Shown piece after piece: positions 2,883-63,848 of a stretch of DNA of 64,000 nucleotides. Each line of letters opens with the position of its first letter. Position 1 is the first letter of the stretch. The translations under genes and the position numbers were made by a program. The notes under the pieces are model-generated. The model worked only from the letters and a program-made list of their open reading frames with translations. It had not been told where the DNA came from and did not search any database. This DNA is from Leptotrichia sp. oral taxon 498 (GTDB lineage: Bacteria; Fusobacteriota; Fusobacteriia; Fusobacteriales; Leptotrichiaceae): the NCBI RefSeq assembly GCF_002240055.1, contig NZ_CP016753.1, positions 1,860,001 to 1,924,000 on the forward strand. Reading direction: 5' to 3'.

Positions 2883-3794
2883 ATGTTAAAATTTAAAAAA
2901 TCAATATTAGTTTTATTTTCATTTTTAGTGCTTGGAAGTTTTTCATTTGCCGCTTACAACACTAATGCCAGAGCTAAAAGAACCAGCGAATATTCAAGCG
3001 GTTCTGCAAGAGCTATGTCTTCATACTATGGAACAATTTCAAATGTAAATGTTTCTGGAAATACTGCCACAATAAGGGAAACGGGACAGCCTTTCACAGG
3101 AAATTACATTGAATACAGTGAAATTGGCGCAGTGAGAACTATAAGACCTTATAAAAATGGAATTTTAGATGGTGTAATGTACTTGTATTATGATAATGGA
3201 AATTTGTTAAAAGTTACAAATTACACAAATGGAAATAAAGATGGAGAAGAAATCGAGTTTTATGGAAATGGATATTCAAAATCAATAAAGATTTATAGAA
3301 ACGGTGTCCTAAATGGCATTGCTTACGATTTTGATGAGTTTGGAAGACCTGCAGGCTCAGTAGAATATGTAAACAACTTAAAAAACGGAAAAGAAGTAAA
3401 AATTTCAAACGGTGTTGTAATTGCTGAGAGTATTTATCAATATGGAAGATTAAATGGACCTGTAACTTTATACTACACAAATGGAACAGTTCGAATGACA
3501 GGAAATTACACTTCAAATTTAAGAAATGGTCAATGGACTTGGAACTATGAAAATGGTTCAAAAAGATTGATCGAAAGCTATAACAATGGAATAATTTACC
3601 AAGTTGCTGGATACAATAGGGACGGTTCAAAAGAACGTGAAATAAAATTATCTAATGGAAGTGGAGAATTTACCCAATATTATAGCAATGGAAAAGTAAA
3701 AGCAAAAGGAACTTTGAGAAATTATAAGCCTTATGGAAACTGGAATTTTTATAATAGTCAAGGTTATGTAACTGATACACAAGGGTTTTATTAA
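2883..3794 (+). CDS. Secreted YwqK/MORN-like repeat protein
   Basis: This 303-residue exported protein has a signal peptide (MLKFKKSILVLFSF, hydrophobic to about residue 22, cleavage after SFA). The rest is at least eight repeats of about 22 residues with a core of aromatic-x-NG-x-hydrophobic-x(5-7)-Y-x-NG-x-xxG, such as YYDNGNLLKVTNYTNG. These are MORN-variant repeats of the kind annotated as YwqK-family antitoxin. That label comes from a Bacillus locus and says little about function here; no toxin gene is adjacent. A surface or periplasmic binding role is a reasonable inference. AAAGGAGG precedes the ATG by 5 bases. A distant relative lies at 61306 in this window. Confidence 0.8.
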   Translation: MLKFKKSILVLFSFLVLGSFSFAAYNTNARAKRTSEYSSGSARAMSSYYGTISNVNVSGNTATIRETGQPFTGNYIEYSEIGAVRTIRPYKNGILDGVMYLYYDNGNLLKVTNYTNGNKDGEEIEFYGNGYSKSIKIYRNGVLNGIAYDFDEFGRPAGSVEYVNNLKNGKEVKISNGVVIAESIYQYGRLNGPVTLYYTNGTVRMTGNYTSNLRNGQWTWNYENGSKRLIESYNNGIIYQVAGYNRDGSKEREIKLSNGSGEFTQYYSNGKVKAKGTLRNYKPYGNWNFYNSQGYVTDTQGFY

Positions 3795-54774: not shown

Positions 54775-54812
54775 TATAGTGCAATACATAAAATTTCTGG
54801 GATGTGATAAAA

Positions 54813-55694
54813 ATGAAAAAATTCTTTCTAATATTAGCAGTTTTTTTAATGAATATAAAAATTTATGGATTTACACAAAAAGAAAAAATTCAAAGCACTT
54901 TGTCAAAAATAGGGATAAAACAAGAAATTATTGACGAAACAATAAAGCTTAACTATGAAATAAGGGATACACAATATTTTGAAGATGACGAAAAAATTAT
55001 TTCGCAAAGAATTGAAAAATTAAAAAAACTTTTTGGTAAAGATGAGAGAAATTATATAATCTCACAGGATTTAATTACGATTTTTGGAGAAAAATTGGGA
55101 GAAAACTATAAACATTATTTGAATTTATTTATAAAATATACACCATATGAATATGAAAAAATTTTTTCAAAAATGATCTATTCACTCGATAACGGTGAAG
55201 TTTCAAATTTCCAAAATTATATGAACCAAATTTCTAAAACTTACAAAAATACTCCTGTAATTATTGAATTAGCAAAACTTTTTACAATAAATAACTTTGA
55301 AGAAAAACAAATCCAAACTGAAAAAGTTCTAAATTTGCTGAAGGAAGAAAAAGATAGAGAAAAAATAGGAGTTTCAGATGAAGAATATCACTTTATGCGA
55401 CTTACATATTTTTTGAACAAAATTAGAAATTATTACGATAACGGTGAAATTGAAAAAGCTGTATCAGAATATTTGAAAAATGTGAATACTACAAAAGTCA
55501 GCGATGAAGTAAAAAATTATAATCTTCGTGCAGAAGTTATATTATATTTTAATGTTGTACTAATGAACGAGCAAATTTCAGATGAACTAAAAAAAGCAGT
55601 TAATATTTCTAGTTTGGAAGACACTTGGGTTGCGTCAAAAATTAAAGAAGAAACTGAAAAAGATAGCAAATTTTTGGATAAAATGTTACAATAA
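54813..55694 (+). CDS. Secreted helical-repeat protein, first of two tandem paralogues
   Basis: This 293-residue protein (from the chosen start) has a signal peptide (MKKFFLILAVFLMNIKIYGF) and an all-helical mature part that resembles TPR-like repeats but lacks a clear TPR consensus. The first mature module (LSKIGIKQEIIDETIKLNYE) is repeated closely in the next gene (LSKIGVNKTIIDKTIELDYE). Other shared stretches are TYKNTPVI against IYNGTPVM and the region before the C-terminus, so the two are full-length homologues from tandem duplication. Function is not recognised. GTG at 54804 extends the frame by three residues, but the ATG at 54813 gives the cleaner signal. Confidence 0.72.
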   Translation: MKKFFLILAVFLMNIKIYGFTQKEKIQSTLSKIGIKQEIIDETIKLNYEIRDTQYFEDDEKIISQRIEKLKKLFGKDERNYIISQDLITIFGEKLGENYKHYLNLFIKYTPYEYEKIFSKMIYSLDNGEVSNFQNYMNQISKTYKNTPVIIELAKLFTINNFEEKQIQTEKVLNLLKEEKDREKIGVSDEEYHFMRLTYFLNKIRNYYDNGEIEKAVSEYLKNVNTTKVSDEVKNYNLRAEVILYFNVVLMNEQISDELKKAVNISSLEDTWVASKIKEETEKDSKFLDKMLQ

Positions 55695-55771
55695 AAATAA
55701 AATAAAACAAAATAAAACAAAATAAATTTTATTTATTTATGAGATAATTAAAAAATAATATTAATAAATAA

Positions 55772-55787
55772 ATTTGAGTTTAAATAA
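55772..55787 (+). repeat. 16-base motif shared with 62309-62324
   Basis: ATTTGAGTTTAAATAA is identical at both sites, each 30-50 bases before the start of a secreted protein gene. It may be a promoter or regulatory element. Confidence 0.45.
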
Positions 55788-55820
55788 CTTTAATTAATTA
55801 ATTGATTAGATGGAGGGAAA

Positions 55821-56855
55821 ATGAAAAAAAATTTTTTACTTTTAATATTTTTTATAATTAGTTTAAACGCTTTGGCTTATACAAGAGCTGAAAATATTAA
55901 AGATAAACTTTCTAAAATTGGAGTTAATAAAACAATAATTGATAAAACTATCGAGTTAGATTATGAAATAAAAGATGATTTTTCTGAAGATTTTGATGAT
56001 AAAATGGAAAAATTGCAAAATCTTTACGCACAAGATAATAAAAATTTTTATGTTAGCGATTTAATTGCAAATGGGTACATGTTTTCTGATAAAAAAGACT
56101 TTAACAAGGCAAAAGAATACTTGGAAAAAGGTGAAAAATATAACGAAAAATTTGATAATTTGCTTAATAAAGTGAATTTGTATACCGTATTTAATAAAAA
56201 GAAAGATGAAAAAAGATACAAAGATGAACTAAAAAAAATTTATAATGGAACTCCTGTTATGGATTTACTGGACTTTGTCTATTCTGGAATTGAAAATTAC
56301 AGAGATGAGAAGTTACCAAACAGCTCTGATGATTTGCCATTTGGGTCTTTTTATGATGAAAATACGGGCGAAATTATAAATGGAATTGCTAACGATGACG
56401 ATGAAAATGACAATCAAAATATGAATTTCGAAGAAAGTCTGGATGAAATTAATAAAACAATTAGAAATTCTACAAAAGAAATTGATAAAAATGTGGAAAA
56501 ATTTAAAAGAATTTTAAAATATTTTTCAAATGAAAAAAATAAACAAAAATTTTCTTTGACAGACGATATTTACAGAAATTTAGAACTTCTTGTGGAAACT
56601 AACACCATCGAAAAAATTTCAGCAAATGATGGAATCTTAAAAGCGCTGGATTACTATATAAACAATGTTTCTAATAAAGCGAAAGATAAAGAATTTGAAT
56701 TTACAAAAGATGGGGAGATGACACTTTACGCACTGCTATACATAGGTTCTGCAACAATTAAAGATGAAAAAGTTTATGAAACTTACAGAAAAAAATTAAA
56801 AGATACAAAGGTTGCAAAACTTTTGAGAGATTCTGAAGCAAAAACAAACAAATAA
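55821..56855 (+). CDS. Secreted helical-repeat protein, second of two tandem paralogues
   Basis: This 344-residue protein has a signal peptide (MKKNFLLLIFFIISLNALA) and the same opening module as its upstream neighbour. One TPR-like pair is visible (ANGYMFSDKKDFNKAKEYLEKG near 83). A middle acidic, Asp/Asn-rich stretch (about 165-200) is an insertion relative to the first paralogue, and the C-terminal third is helical. A periplasmic or surface protein-binding role is inferred from the repeat type only. GGAGGG precedes the ATG. It is 126 bases after the first paralogue, which leaves room for a promoter of its own. Confidence 0.72.
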   Translation: MKKNFLLLIFFIISLNALAYTRAENIKDKLSKIGVNKTIIDKTIELDYEIKDDFSEDFDDKMEKLQNLYAQDNKNFYVSDLIANGYMFSDKKDFNKAKEYLEKGEKYNEKFDNLLNKVNLYTVFNKKKDEKRYKDELKKIYNGTPVMDLLDFVYSGIENYRDEKLPNSSDDLPFGSFYDENTGEIINGIANDDDENDNQNMNFEESLDEINKTIRNSTKEIDKNVEKFKRILKYFSNEKNKQKFSLTDDIYRNLELLVETNTIEKISANDGILKALDYYINNVSNKAKDKEFEFTKDGEMTLYALLYIGSATIKDEKVYETYRKKLKDTKVAKLLRDSEAKTNK

Positions 56856-59847: not shown

Positions 59848-59856
59848 TGGTATAAT
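59848..59856 (+). promoter_or_regulatory. Extended -10 promoter of the lipoprotein/YwqK module
   Basis: TGGTATAAT stands about 44 bases before the TTG start of the first lipoprotein gene. Confidence 0.6.
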
Positions 59857-59899
59857 TTAAGTAAAAAAGAGAATATTTTATTGGAAGGATGTGTTTTGT

Positions 59900-61303
59900 T
59901 TGAAAAAAGTATTTTTAATTTTATTGCTGCTATTTACGATTGTGTCATGTGAATTAGAAGATGCCAGAGAAGCTTATAATAAAAAGGAATATTTAAAAAG
60001 TATAGAATTAGTTTTTAATTATTTTGAAACAAATCCAAAAAAAATTAATAAAATTAAGCCTGAAATAAAAAATGAAATTATGGAGAAATTTTTGAATATT
60101 ACAAATCATTATAAAGAGATGACAGGGAGCCGTGATTTGAGCGAAAGACAGAAAGGTTATGAAGAATTGGTTAAAATTTATGCATTATTTGACACTTATA
60201 AAAACTCTTCAACTTTTTCGGATTTTCAGCAAAAATACCCTTTGGATGAATCTTTGAATAATATTGAAAAAATAATTACGCAAAGATTAAAAAATAATAA
60301 TTATAATTATGAATATTATGGTTATGACCATTTTAAAGATGTGACGAATGATATAAATAATTACTATGAAGATATCTTAAAATTTATTGATTCTATGGAA
60401 AAAAATCCAAAAATATCCAATGAAATGGCTTTAAAATATAAAGAAATAAGTAAGCAGATAAATAAAAATAAAGCTAATAAATTTATCGAATTTGCTAATG
60501 CAAGTGAAAATAAAAAAAATTATAGAGAAGCACAGAGATTTTACGAAGAAGCTGATAAACTTTTTGTAATAACTCGCCAAGATGCAAAAAAAGTCTCAAT
60601 TAAAACAAAGGAATTAAAAGAAAAGGCTGATTTGCAAGCAGCACAAAACGCATATAGTATAGCTTTATCAAGCCTTAAAAATGCTAAAACTAGAAATGAC
60701 TATAGAAACGCAGTTTGGGATTTAGAAAGAGCAAATGAACTTGTTCCAAATTATAAAGATTCTGTAAGTTTGATTTCAAAATATAAAGATAAAATTTATG
60801 TAAAATACAATATTTTTGGGTGCAGCAATAGCTGGGTTGAAAAATATCTAGATAAAAAATTGGAAAATGTCATTGGTAAGAAAACTTCTGCAAATTCTGC
60901 TGAAGTTCAAATAAATTGCAGAGTTACTGATAACTATAATATCTCTACATTTCCTAGCAATATTGAGAATCTGAGAGAAATAAGAGAAATTGTAAATAAT
61001 GCTGGTGAAAAGGTTACAAAAGAGTTTATATTTCAAAAAATTAAAAGTCTAGCGATCGAAAAAATAACTTTTAACTATGAAATAGAAGTATCAGGTCTTG
61101 TAAAACAAAGATATTCAAATAATCTTTCAGAAAAAAATGAGGTGCATTCACTCCAATATATAGGAGATATTCCAAAAGAATATAAAGATAAGGATAAAAT
61201 AGAAAAACCTTTAGGTGAAACCAAAATGAGAAATAAAATTTTAGAAAAATCTAATTTAGAAAGAGAATTAAATCAAATAATTGATGCGATGGATAGGTTA
61301 TAG
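59900..61303 (+). CDS. Lipoprotein with helical repeats and a conserved C-terminal domain, copy 1 (TTG start)
   Basis: This 467-residue lipoprotein has a signal (KKVFLILLLLFTIVS then Cys17, a clear lipobox). A first helical part (18-130) includes a stretch ending GYEELVKIYALFDTY, and TPR-like helices rich in Ala, Glu and Lys run to about 290. The C-terminal domain of about 175 residues starts at VKYNIFGCSN, with a second Cys in AEVQINCRVTDNY. All three parts recur in the gene at 62356. Upstream GTG at 59891 touches the GGAAGG site; alignment with the ATG of the second copy supports TTG 59900. Function is not recognised. The YwqK-like gene follows after two bases. Confidence 0.78.
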   Translation: MKKVFLILLLLFTIVSCELEDAREAYNKKEYLKSIELVFNYFETNPKKINKIKPEIKNEIMEKFLNITNHYKEMTGSRDLSERQKGYEELVKIYALFDTYKNSSTFSDFQQKYPLDESLNNIEKIITQRLKNNNYNYEYYGYDHFKDVTNDINNYYEDILKFIDSMEKNPKISNEMALKYKEISKQINKNKANKFIEFANASENKKNYREAQRFYEEADKLFVITRQDAKKVSIKTKELKEKADLQAAQNAYSIALSSLKNAKTRNDYRNAVWDLERANELVPNYKDSVSLISKYKDKIYVKYNIFGCSNSWVEKYLDKKLENVIGKKTSANSAEVQINCRVTDNYNISTFPSNIENLREIREIVNNAGEKVTKEFIFQKIKSLAIEKITFNYEIEVSGLVKQRYSNNLSEKNEVHSLQYIGDIPKEYKDKDKIEKPLGETKMRNKILEKSNLERELNQIIDAMDRL

Positions 61304-61305
61304 TT

Positions 61306-62304
61306 ATGAAAAATAAAATAAAAAAAATAATTTTAGTTAGTACATTTTGCTTTTTACCAATTATAGCGAAATCCCAAAGTTTGGGAAATATTTCAGGTAT
61401 TTCAAAATTGGAAAATTTTTCAAAAATAAAAAATATTGAAGCAGAAAAAATATTGGATTATGATACACAAATTGTACTAAATAATAATCTAGCTTATGAA
61501 AAAGAAAATAATAAATTATTTACTGGAGTTGCAGTTCAAAAAATAAAAGATAACATCAAAAATATAAATTTTTATGAAAACGGAAACCTCATTTCTTATT
61601 ACAAATATTTTCTGGACGGAAATATTGAAGAGGCAAAGGAGATTGACAAAGAAAAGAATCAAGTAATTATCCAAAAATATGATAAAAATAAAAAAACTGC
61701 TTCACAAAAAATTTATGAAAATGGATTTTTAAAATCAGAAAATCAATATGTCAACGGAAATTTGACCGCAGAATATAAATCTAGTGGAAAAGAAAATGGG
61801 AAATTTATTTACTATAATGGCAACAAAAAAGTTTTATCAGAAATGGAAGTTTTGCAAGCTAATAAAAAAGGACAGAGTTATCAAATACCAAAGACTATAA
61901 AAATCTTTGGAAAAAACGGGAAAATTGAGAGGGAATACACTTTTGAAAATGGAACTCTTGAAAATCAAACACAAAAAGTTTATTATCCAAATGGAAATTT
62001 GAAATATACTGGAATTGCTAAAAATAACGATATGATAAATATGGAAATAAAAGATTTGTATGAAGAATATAATTCCAATGGAACAAAAAAAATGAGTTGT
62101 AAAGAAATCGAAACTGATAAATGGAGCTGCGAATACTATAAAAAAAATGGAGAACTAAAAATTAGAAAACAAATTAAAAAGGATTTTTCTAAAAATTTAG
62201 CTACTTCAAAGTATATCTATGATAATGAGCCTGGAATGAATTTTTTAAAATCTGTGGGAGAAGGAATAGGAAATATATTTTTGATGATTTTAGAAGGAAT
62301 ATAG
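61306..62304 (+). CDS. Secreted YwqK/MORN-like repeat protein in the duplicated module
   Basis: This 332-residue protein has a signal peptide (MKNKIKKIILVSTFCFLPIIA, cleavage after AKS), a linker, then MORN/YwqK-type repeats from about 85: FYENGNLISYYKYFLDG, IYENGFLKSENQYVNG, YYPNGNLKYTGIA and YYKKNGELKIRKQI. The C-terminus ends in a short hydrophobic helix (about 318-332). It lies two bases after the lipoprotein gene, so it is translationally coupled with it, and the two products probably act together in the envelope. It is a distant relative of the protein at 2883. Confidence 0.77.
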   Translation: MKNKIKKIILVSTFCFLPIIAKSQSLGNISGISKLENFSKIKNIEAEKILDYDTQIVLNNNLAYEKENNKLFTGVAVQKIKDNIKNINFYENGNLISYYKYFLDGNIEEAKEIDKEKNQVIIQKYDKNKKTASQKIYENGFLKSENQYVNGNLTAEYKSSGKENGKFIYYNGNKKVLSEMEVLQANKKGQSYQIPKTIKIFGKNGKIEREYTFENGTLENQTQKVYYPNGNLKYTGIAKNNDMINMEIKDLYEEYNSNGTKKMSCKEIETDKWSCEYYKKNGELKIRKQIKKDFSKNLATSKYIYDNEPGMNFLKSVGEGIGNIFLMILEGI

Positions 62305-62308
62305 ATGT

Positions 62309-62324
62309 ATTTGAGTTTAAATAA
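62309..62324 (+). repeat. 16-base motif shared with 55772-55787
   Basis: ATTTGAGTTTAAATAA is identical to the copy before the gene at 55821. Here it lies about 31 bases before the second lipoprotein gene. Confidence 0.45.
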
Positions 62325-62355
62325 TAAAAAATTTTAATCGAAAGGATCTGTTCTT

Positions 62356-63741
62356 ATGAAAAAAATATTTTTAATTTTATTGCTGTTATTTACCATTGTA
62401 TCTTGTGAATTAAAAAAGGCACAAGAGGCGTATGATAATAAAGAATATATAAGAAGCATATATCTTACTTTGAGTTATTTTGAGAAACATCCAAACAAAG
62501 TTGAAAAAATTAAACCAGATATTAAAAATGAAATTATGGAAAAGTTTTCTAATATTGTAAATTATTATAAAACAGAAGCTGGAAGCAGTAATTTAGAAGA
62601 AAGACAAGATGGTTATGAAGGACTTTATAAAATTTATGCACTATTCGATGTTTACTCTCAATCTTCAAATTTTACTGATTTTTTGTCAAAATATGATGGC
62701 GATGAACTTTTAGGCGAAATTTATAAAATTATAGATGAACGTATAAAAACAGGAGAATTGGAAGGTAAATATTCTAGAGATATTATTTCAATACTTGATG
62801 AATATTACAGAAATATGATTGGTTATACTAAAGAATTAAGTGAAATAAAAAAAATAGATGAAAATAAAATTTTAAAATATGAATCAATATCAAGAAAAAT
62901 GTCTCAAGCTGAAGCTGATAAACTCATAGAATATGCCAATATAAAAGAAAAAGCTGAAGAATACCGTGAAGCACAAAAATTAAATGAAGCAGCACAAGAA
63001 ACTTATGGACAATATCAGAAAAATTATAAAAATATGTATATAAAAATTAGAGAACTCAAAAAAAAAGCTGATTATCAAGAAGCAGACAAGCTTTACCAAA
63101 GTGCTGTACGAACTTCTGGTGCTGTAACTAAACATGGATACAGAGAATCAATAGAAAAATTAAAAAAGGTACAAGAAATTATCCCTAATTTTAAAGATTC
63201 AAAAGAGAAAATTGCAGAGTATTCTAAAAAAGCCTACGTAAAATATAACATTTCTGGTTGTGATAATAGCCATGTCCCTGCATATATAAATGGTCATTTA
63301 TCCAAAGTTGGAGTTTATACAAAATATTCAAGTGAGGCTGAAGTCCAAATAAATTGTAAAGTTACAGATAATTATCAAGTTTCTACGTATCCTAGCCAAA
63401 TAAAAAATTTATCTCAAGTAAAAGATGTTAAAAATAGCGATGGACAAACGGTAAAAAAAGAATTTATATTTCAGGAAAGTAAAACTAAGTCAGTTGAAAA
63501 ACTAGATTTCAGTTATGAAATAGAACTTTCTGGATATGTGAAAAAAAAATATTCAGGTAATGCATATAAACAACACGAAATAAACTCGTTACAGTATTTA
63601 GGAAATGTTCCGTCTGAGTATTCTGGCAAAGATAAAATTGAAAAACTTTGGGGAGAAAGTGAAATGAGAAGAAAAGTTTATGATAGTGCATCTTTTTTTA
63701 AAGATCTTGAAGATATAGTTAAGGAGTTGGAAAAATTATAA
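62356..63741 (+). CDS. Lipoprotein with helical repeats and a conserved C-terminal domain, copy 2
   Basis: This 461-residue lipoprotein is a full-length paralogue of the gene at 59900. The lipobox region is nearly the same (KKIFLILLLLFTIVS then Cys17). GYEGLYKIYALFDVY and the C-terminal domain (VKYNISGCDN, AEVQINCKVTDNYQVSTYPS, SLQYLGNVPSEYSGKDKIEK) match copy 1. The middle helical part has diverged most. GAAAGGATCTGTTCTT before the ATG matches the sequence before copy 1, so the duplicated unit includes the ribosome site. Its YwqK partner is present only as a remnant just downstream. Confidence 0.8.
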   Translation: MKKIFLILLLLFTIVSCELKKAQEAYDNKEYIRSIYLTLSYFEKHPNKVEKIKPDIKNEIMEKFSNIVNYYKTEAGSSNLEERQDGYEGLYKIYALFDVYSQSSNFTDFLSKYDGDELLGEIYKIIDERIKTGELEGKYSRDIISILDEYYRNMIGYTKELSEIKKIDENKILKYESISRKMSQAEADKLIEYANIKEKAEEYREAQKLNEAAQETYGQYQKNYKNMYIKIRELKKKADYQEADKLYQSAVRTSGAVTKHGYRESIEKLKKVQEIIPNFKDSKEKIAEYSKKAYVKYNISGCDNSHVPAYINGHLSKVGVYTKYSSEAEVQINCKVTDNYQVSTYPSQIKNLSQVKDVKNSDGQTVKKEFIFQESKTKSVEKLDFSYEIELSGYVKKKYSGNAYKQHEINSLQYLGNVPSEYSGKDKIEKLWGESEMRRKVYDSASFFKDLEDIVKELEKL

Positions 63742-63848
63742 TTATATATAAAAATAGCGAATTGAAAAAATCTGACAAAAATGGGAAATTAAAATATATA
63801 AAAATAGATGGTGCACTTGAAAATAACATATCTTGCTCTTTGAATTAA
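63741..63848 (+). pseudogene. Remnant of a YwqK/MORN-like gene
   Basis: This stretch reads, without a start codon, IYKNSELKKSDKNGK followed by LKYIKIDGALENN and a stop at 63846. KNGK(L/I)x6(D/E)GxLEN matches a repeat of the intact YwqK protein at 61306 (KNGKIEREYTFENGTLEN), and YKNSELK resembles YKKNGELK. Its position just after lipoprotein copy 2 is where the second YwqK gene would be expected if the pair was duplicated. Only about 35 codons remain, so this is a decayed fragment. Confidence 0.6.

What the first reader, a model, noticed from the sequence alone, without database searches (positions are those of the whole stretch)
59848..63848. Tandemly duplicated lipoprotein + YwqK secreted-protein module with one decayed copy
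Two full-length paralogous lipoproteins (59900 and 62356) share signal peptide, helical region, C-terminal domain and even the ribosome-site region. The first is followed after two bases by a secreted YwqK/MORN-like gene. The second is followed by a remnant of about 35 codons that reads like a YwqK repeat. This implies duplication of a two-gene unit and later loss of one partner. The lipoprotein C-terminal domain, with two conserved Cys, is not a family I recognise, so the pair may be an undescribed envelope module, for example a receptor or adhesin with a partner.
Basis: partly seen in the sequence, partly recalled or inferred. Interest (0 to 1): 0.55.

Follow-up and report, generated by a model that had tools for sequence, protein, structure and literature searches.

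The report
Duplicated lipoprotein with disposable secreted partner
A bacterium related to mouth-dwelling Leptotrichia carries two tandem copies of an undescribed envelope lipoprotein, each apparently once paired with a secreted repeat-protein gene that close relatives keep, break or delete in different combinations.

Summary
Lip1 (59900-61303) and Lip2 (62356-63741) are paralogous lipoproteins (45% identity). A secreted YwqK/MORN_2-like gene (61306-62304) starts two bases after Lip1. By sequence alone the 35-codon 'remnant' after Lip2 is not convincingly YwqK. Relatives rescue the idea: one sister species keeps an intact YwqK exactly there, two others have recognisable remnants there, and the Lip1 partner is intact in two genomes and reduced to a scar or truncated remnant in three. 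The ancestor of this six-species clade most likely had lip1-YwqK1-lip2-YwqK2.

The wider 'envelope module' claim is weaker. The lipoprotein is a Leptotrichiaceae family (profile match in 26 of 33 genomes), elsewhere without a YwqK neighbour where examined, and dispensable. Its C-terminal domain has no Pfam match; a moderate-confidence model resembles outer-membrane lipoproteins of the LptE/HpaA/CsgG/PqiC type, suggesting an outer-membrane accessory or scaffold, not specifically a receptor.

The closest relatives found for this YwqK lie in a polymorphic cluster of one other species, mostly directly downstream of effector-like genes, so an orphan-immunity origin is possible but untested. Lip2 has also moved horizontally into a distant species. 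New lineage-specific family, modest interest.

The parts
59900..61303 (+). Lip1: lipoprotein (lipobox IVSC, Cys17), helical middle, C-terminal alpha/beta domain; TTG start, shared with G006, where G002, G004 and G012 have ATG
61306..62304 (+). YwqK1: secreted MORN_2/YwqK-like protein, 332 aa, starts 2 bases after the Lip1 stop
   Evidence: 96% identical orthologue in G006 at the same place
62356..63741 (+). Lip2: tandem paralogue of Lip1, 461 aa
63742..63848 (+). 35-codon open stretch after Lip2 (frame 63741-63848); probable relic of YwqK2 by position (intact YwqK in G004, remnants in G002 and G003 at this place); own sequence not significant
60782..61300 (+). Lip1 C-terminal domain (second row of the structure alignment A7)
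63223..63738 (+). Lip2 C-terminal domain; predicted beta-alpha-beta-beta-beta-alpha, mean pLDDT 71, resembling LptE/HpaA-type outer-membrane lipoproteins

Best explanation
Lip1 and Lip2 belong to a Leptotrichiaceae-restricted family of outer-membrane lipoproteins: a lipid anchor, a helical (TPR-like by appearance) stem, and an LptE/HpaA/CsgG-like alpha/beta domain. In the ancestor of one six-species clade a unit of lipoprotein plus secreted YwqK-like gene was duplicated in tandem, giving lip1-YwqK1-lip2-YwqK2; the lipoprotein copies diverged while the YwqK copies were then lost in different combinations. Most likely the lipoprotein works as a non-essential scaffold or accessory subunit in the periplasm, and YwqK as a soluble, dispensable envelope partner translated from the same message. 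Shown: paralogy, positions, scars, selection, distribution. Inferred: outer-membrane location, scaffold role, partnership, shared message.
For: Paralogy 45%, E=3e-138. Family profile matches 26 of 33 Leptotrichiaceae genomes, counting one fossil and several N-terminal-only matches; the C-terminal domain profile matches 19 of 98 Fusobacteriota, all 19 in this family. Lip1 and Lip2 of the clade are sisters (100/99) apart from the lipoproteins of the other clade. Intact YwqK after Lip1 in G000 and G006, after Lip2 in G004. Remnants above every one of 200 shuffles: G012 after Lip1 (191 against a maximum of 48), G002 after Lip2 (71 against 54), G003 after its lipoprotein (90 against 57). Scars identical to the first 25 and 15 bases of YwqK1, starting 2 bases after the Lip1 stop, in G002 and G004. 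Purifying selection: dN/dS 0.16-0.25 among four Lip1 of the clade (G006 left out as frameshifted), 0.12-0.24 among Lip2 of G000, G002, G004, G005 and G006, 0.15 for YwqK G000/G006. Lipobox Cys in 15 of 15 rows. Domain model matched mainly by LptE chains in the first 20 Foldseek rows, and by HpaA (Z 7.6), LptE (6.9) and PqiC (6.2) in the second look.
Against: The window's own remnant is not significantly YwqK-like. The linkage traces to one clade, so it is one evolutionary event, not repeated co-occurrence. Insertion of YwqK into previously empty sites is not wholly excluded. The lipoprotein has no match in G007 and G011 and is a fossil in G009, so whatever it does is dispensable. The fold match is middling: no Foldseek E at or below 0.001, Z under 8, model from two sequences. 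No Pfam TPR match for Lip1 or Lip2.
Confidence: 0.55

Rival explanations
1. YwqK1/YwqK2 are orphan immunity-type proteins: secreted guards against envelope-acting effectors of competitors, lodged beside a neutral lipoprotein gene and gained or lost with the local threat. The lipoprotein is only a neighbour, or the structure being guarded.
For: By single-sequence search of 60 genomes the closest relatives outside the locus are in G010:C75 (best E=1.8e-32), where five near-full copies exist; 3 of 5 begin within the 3' end of a 472-513 aa family gene (A8), one follows a short gene with part of that domain, one is at the contig start. The cluster holds DUF4280 (PAAR-like, PMC8651086 passages), FHA, PP2C and a gene with sub-threshold HlyD-type matches. 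YwqK is named an antitoxin of an LXG toxin in B. subtilis (PMC8321402 passages). Patchy retention is typical of immunity genes (general knowledge).
Against: The A8 family matches 2 of 98 Fusobacteriota (G010, plus a 32-residue hit in G003) and not the window's genome. A8 proteins have no Pfam match and are not shown to be toxins. Decay rather than diversification is the main pattern. The next-nearest secreted relatives in G005 and G008 are not next to A8 genes (the G009 and G010:C70 neighbourhoods were not listed).
Confidence: 0.18
2. The two genes have no functional link: YwqK entered by chance behind the lipoprotein, was copied with it by the tandem duplication and is being lost as useless baggage.
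For: YwqK intact in 3 of 6 clade genomes. Lip1 or Lip2 persists without an intact one in G002, G003, G005 and G012. In the 11 other lipoprotein neighbourhoods of the 18 (outside the clade and G005) no YwqK neighbour was found.
Against: Where kept, YwqK is under purifying selection (dN/dS 0.15 G000/G006) and sits 2 bases behind Lip1, as in a translationally coupled pair.
Confidence: 0.25
3. The lipoprotein pair is a surface adhesin or receptor, with HpaA-like exposure.
For: Best second-look match is HpaA (Z 7.6). Lipoprotein divergence can exceed that of flanking thrC: G003 lip 69% against ThrC 96%, both to G000. Lip2 moved into G005.
Against: Within the clade selection is purifying, not diversifying. 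LptE, CsgG and PqiC matches, which are not adhesins, are about as good.
Confidence: 0.12

Closest known systems
LptE / HpaA / CsgG / PqiC-type outer-membrane lipoproteins (structures in the PDB)
   Same: Lipid-anchored; the C-terminal domain model aligns with them over most of its length (Z 6.0-7.6)
   Different: No sequence-profile match (no LptE at E<=1; 0 of 40 genomes); long helical region before the domain; missing from some species of the genus
YwqK / MORN_2 proteins (Pfam PF07661; B. subtilis YwqK antitoxin)
   Same: Degenerate MORN_2 repeats; relatives of the same subfamily pass the Pfam cut-off
   Different: Signal peptide by eye; linked to a lipoprotein rather than an LXG toxin; the window protein itself is below the Pfam cut-off (18.2 against 29.6)
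Orphan immunity genes next to or derived from T6SS effector-immunity pairs (e.g. Bacteroidales rAID, PMC12247911, abstract and outline seen)
   Same: Patchy presence and decay; nearest homologues mostly sit downstream of effector-like genes in G010
   Different: No recombinase array looked for or seen; no A8 gene in the window's genome; function untested

Membership tests
Bacterial lipoproteins | N-terminal hydrophobic stretch followed by a lipobox Cys | tested here: met
   Cys17 conserved in 15 of 15 rows; hydrophobic stretch read by eye; no signal-peptide program run
LptE (PF04390) | Match to the Pfam profile | tested here: not met
   No LptE match for Lip1 or Lip2 at E<=1; 0 of 40 genomes
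LptE/HpaA/CsgG-like fold | Same fold of the C-terminal domain | tested here: inconclusive
   Model pLDDT 71 from two sequences; best Foldseek E 1.4e-3, best Z 7.6
DUF4136 (PF13590) | Match to the Pfam profile | tested here: not met
   No match in G000; none for Lip1 or Lip2 at E<=1
TPR proteins | Pfam TPR match in the helical region | tested here: not met
   None for Lip1 or Lip2 at E<=1; a distant relative in G018 has a sub-threshold TPR_12 match
YwqK / MORN_2 | MORN_2 repeats above the Pfam cut-off | tested here: not met
   18.2 bits against 29.6; but homologues in G010:C75, matched at E=2.1e-25 to 1.8e-32 among others, include one at 52.1 bits
YwqK antitoxins | Neutralises a cognate toxin | not testable with these tools
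   The gene's neighbours are lipoproteins, not a recognised toxin; function needs an assay
Orphan immunity genes | Homologue of an immunity gene paired with an effector elsewhere | tested here: inconclusive
   In G010 3 of 5 near-full homologues begin within the end of an A8 gene; A8 function unknown

The most novel reading that the evidence does not exclude
The secreted YwqK is an orphan immunity protein derived from a polymorphic effector cluster like that of G010. It was coupled to a lineage-specific outer-membrane lipoprotein, perhaps the structure it guards, and is repeatedly duplicated and lost, while the lipoprotein itself moves between species.
Probability: 0.12. Interest if true: 0.65.

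Novelty: new variant of a known kind. Interest (0 to 1): 0.35.

Why it matters
It defines an undescribed, family-restricted envelope lipoprotein with a possible LptE-like domain in bacteria where no Pfam LptE was detected (0 of 40 genomes), and gives a clear case history of a two-gene unit that duplicated and then lost partners in different ways in sister species. If the YwqK partner proves to be an orphan immunity factor, it would give a concrete, testable example of periplasmic defence genes in Fusobacteriota.

Tried and rejected
LptE and DUF4136 membership were tested by profile and not met. PDB sequence searches with the whole family and the domain gave only weak hits (best E 0.012 for Sel1-type helical repeats, 0.16 for S100 proteins), judged chance or composition. 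The full-length structure (pLDDT 49) was not used. The viral structure library gave nothing at or below E=0.001. Plasmids (Lip2 by tblastn) and viral contigs (alignment A1) gave no relative of the lipoprotein. The genome-contig collection gave none for A1 and one MAG for A3; records near the window may be left out there. Phase variation of Lip1 was considered: G006 has a frameshift in a poly-A run, but A/T runs of 8 or more are common in this 29% GC window (59 in 64 kb), so it is not claimed. Diversifying selection found no support in whole-gene dN/dS; no site test was run. Promoter-like sites were little above chance (37 against 29.1, sd 5.3) and terminators at chance (1 against 0.6). My first ORF filter dropped ORFs overlapping a longer one by more than 60 bases and so could hide a YwqK; the count of 3 of 18 was repeated without that filter, with the same three plus the G012 truncated gene. 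Some matches above all shuffles are not YwqK evidence: the segments after Lip1 in G002 and G004 and after YwqK1 match the leader in front of Lip2, and one segment matches itself. Literature, by listing only: Leptotrichia with lipoprotein and genome (15 of 183 listed), with MORN (10 of 264 listed; the term also fits 'morning') and with tandem duplication and lipoprotein (one paper) showed no title on this locus; other searches were made, and one passage on a YwqK-family gene in F. nucleatum was seen (PMC9239216).
Full report
What is there. The window is part of a 2.15 Mb single-contig genome (G000). Lip1 (59900-61303, TTG start) and Lip2 (62356-63741) are lipoproteins of 467 and 461 aa with 45% identity. 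YwqK1 (61306-62304) begins two bases after the Lip1 stop, and Lip2 begins after a further 51 bases. Lip1 and Lip2 are most alike in their first 120 columns (62-68%), least in the middle (29-35%) and in the last 27 columns (22%), and 48-55% alike in between. Neither lipoprotein passes a Pfam or NCBIfam cut-off. YwqK1 has only a sub-threshold MORN_2 hit, but homologues in the same subfamily pass the cut-off.

The remnant. The 35 codons after Lip2 include 'DKNGKLKYIKID', which resembles a MORN_2 repeat, but the statistics are weak: 232, 237 and 489 of 1000 shuffles reach its pairwise protein score against three YwqK proteins; a YwqK profile gives it 6.5 bits, seventh by score of 1001 sequences of which 1000 are its shuffles; and 27 of 200 DNA shuffles reach its score against the downstream YwqK of G004, 185 of 200 against YwqK1. 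By itself it would not establish a lost YwqK. G006 has nearly the same stretch, also without significant DNA similarity (107 and 91 of 200).

What relatives show. Of 13 genomes of the genus, 10 have an apparently full-length lipoprotein gene, G009 has a fossil and G007 and G011 have no match. In all 10 it lies beside threonine synthase (thrC). By the ThrC tree G000, G002, G003, G004, G006 and G012 form one clade and the other seven another (100/100). Arrangements in the first clade: G000 lip1-YwqK1-lip2-[relic]; G006 lip1 with a frameshift in a poly-A run (possibly an assembly error)-YwqK1-lip2-[same relic]; G004 lip1-[first 15 bases of YwqK1]-lip2-YwqK2 intact; G002 lip1-[first 25 bases of YwqK1]-lip2-[YwqK2 remnant]; G012 lip1-[about 145-base YwqK1 remnant], no lip2; G003 one Lip2-like gene-[YwqK2 remnant]. 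The three remnants exceed all of 200 shuffles, in a script that tested 11 segments against two queries. The simplest history is an ancestral lip1-YwqK1-lip2-YwqK2 array with independent losses. The lipoprotein tree puts Lip1 and Lip2 of this clade together (100/99; midpoint root), so the duplication followed the split from the other clade's lipoproteins; G010 has its own tandem pair, one copy on a long, uncertain branch.

Limits of the module idea. A YwqK profile run over ORFs in 18 lipoprotein neighbourhoods (16 to 19 kb each except one of 4.6 kb) finds an intact YwqK gene only in G000, G004 and G006, 3 of 18, and the truncated one in G012; the result is the same with and without an overlap filter, apart from the G012 fragment. 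Outside the clade the place after the lipoprotein holds other small secreted genes (for example G001, G005, G010) or nothing recognisable (G008). So the linkage is one event in one clade.

A horizontal move. G005 belongs to the other clade by ThrC (dS 0.96 to G000), yet its only full-length lipoprotein is a Lip2 96% identical to that of G000 (dS 0.12) and sits inside the Lip2 branch. Lip2 therefore very likely moved between clades; no YwqK remnant was detected behind it.

Distribution and selection. The family profile matches 26 of 33 Leptotrichiaceae genomes, some only in the N-terminal part; the C-terminal domain matches 19 of 98 Fusobacteriota, all in this family. Within the clade dN/dS is 0.16-0.25 for Lip1 (four genomes) and 0.12-0.24 for Lip2 (five genomes including G005; 0.39-0.40 against the diverged G003), 0.15 for YwqK G000/G006, and 0.03-0.10 over all ThrC pairs: the genes are under purifying selection, weaker than on ThrC. 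Cys302 and Cys334 come and go together (11 of 15 both, 4 of 15 neither, many rows closely related), as a disulphide would; this is inference.

Fold. With only the window's two sequences, the full-length model is useless (pLDDT 49). The C-terminal domain alone reaches pLDDT 71 (best of five models; the others 33.5-56.9) with order beta-alpha-beta-beta-beta-alpha. Of the first 20 Foldseek rows 17 are LptE structures (two of them, 4q35 and 2r76, by my recognition of the entry), best E 1.4e-3 with TM-scores near 0.3. The second look is headed by HpaA (Z 7.6), LptE (6.9) and PqiC (6.2), with CsgG near 6 and TraT, PelC and FlgT near 4.8. Z below 8 can be noise; what persuades me is that the leading rows are, by title or recognition, almost all bacterial envelope lipoproteins. 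No Pfam LptE was found in 40 genomes (the window's and 39 relatives) while 3 of 14 control genomes gave it, but absence of the lipoprotein from G007 and G011 argues against it being the LptE of these bacteria.

The YwqK partner. In 98 Fusobacteriota genomes, near-full-length matches to the secreted subfamily were listed only at this locus and in contig C75 of G010; next come partial matches in stand-alone genes of G005, G008, G009 and G010:C70 (about 118 bits against 268 and more for matches in one piece) (at most 22 candidates per genome were scored and its list is truncated at the weak end). In G010:C75, three of five near-full copies begin within the 3' end of a gene of one 472-513 aa family (A8), a fourth follows a short gene carrying part of the same domain, and the fifth is at the contig start. 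The cluster includes DUF4280, which PMC8651086 (passages read) classes with PAAR proteins, and FHA, PP2C and sub-threshold HlyD-type genes. That is the arrangement of effector-immunity pairs, but the A8 proteins have no known domain and match no other genome of 98 apart from a 32-residue hit in G003. B. subtilis YwqK is described as part of one of the LXG toxin-antitoxin pairs (PMC8321402, passages read). Note that A2 contains the window, G004, G006 and four G010 copies, so the strong profile scores of those rows are by construction; the independent single-sequence search is.

Verdict. The duplication story is right in outline and better supported by relatives than by the window. The functional story is open: an outer-membrane accessory lipoprotein with a dispensable secreted partner is my best reading.

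Noticed in passing
window 54804-56855: Another tandem pair of secreted helical proteins (35% identity over the first 150 residues, E=4e-18), also present in G006 and G012 at the same place.
   Followed up: partly
window 2883-3794: A second secreted MORN_2/YwqK-like protein, 303 aa, with clearer repeats (65 bits with the A2 profile), at a separate locus.
   Followed up: no
L055 8469-9872 (G005): Lip2 of the other clade in a distant species: synonymous distance 0.12 to G000 while flanking thrC has 0.96, so horizontal transfer is likely.
   Followed up: yes
L066 and L067 (G010:C75): Polymorphic cluster with five near-full secreted YwqK copies, three beginning within the end of a 472-513 aa gene family, plus DUF4280, FHA, PP2C and HlyD-like genes; looks like a delivery system with effector-immunity pairs.
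   Followed up: partly
L058 7908-11017 (G010): Tandem pair of the same lipoprotein family in the other clade, one copy with an extra repeat segment and without the two conserved Cys.
   Followed up: partly
L055 7800-8267; L058 6796-7746; L060 11363-11842; L124 and L128 beside thrC: A family of about 155-aa small secreted proteins downstream of the lipoprotein or in its place beside thrC in the other clade; no Pfam match above cut-off for the two scanned. Family membership read by eye.
   Followed up: no
L056 6906-8308 (G006): Lip1 orthologue broken by a frameshift in a poly-A run near codon 48; real loss, switchable expression or assembly error cannot be told apart.
   Followed up: partly
L091 2-2214 (G008): The stand-alone secreted YwqK of G008 is followed on the same strand by a different lipoprotein-like gene (read by eye), a second case of a YwqK next to a lipoprotein but of another family.
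   Followed up: no
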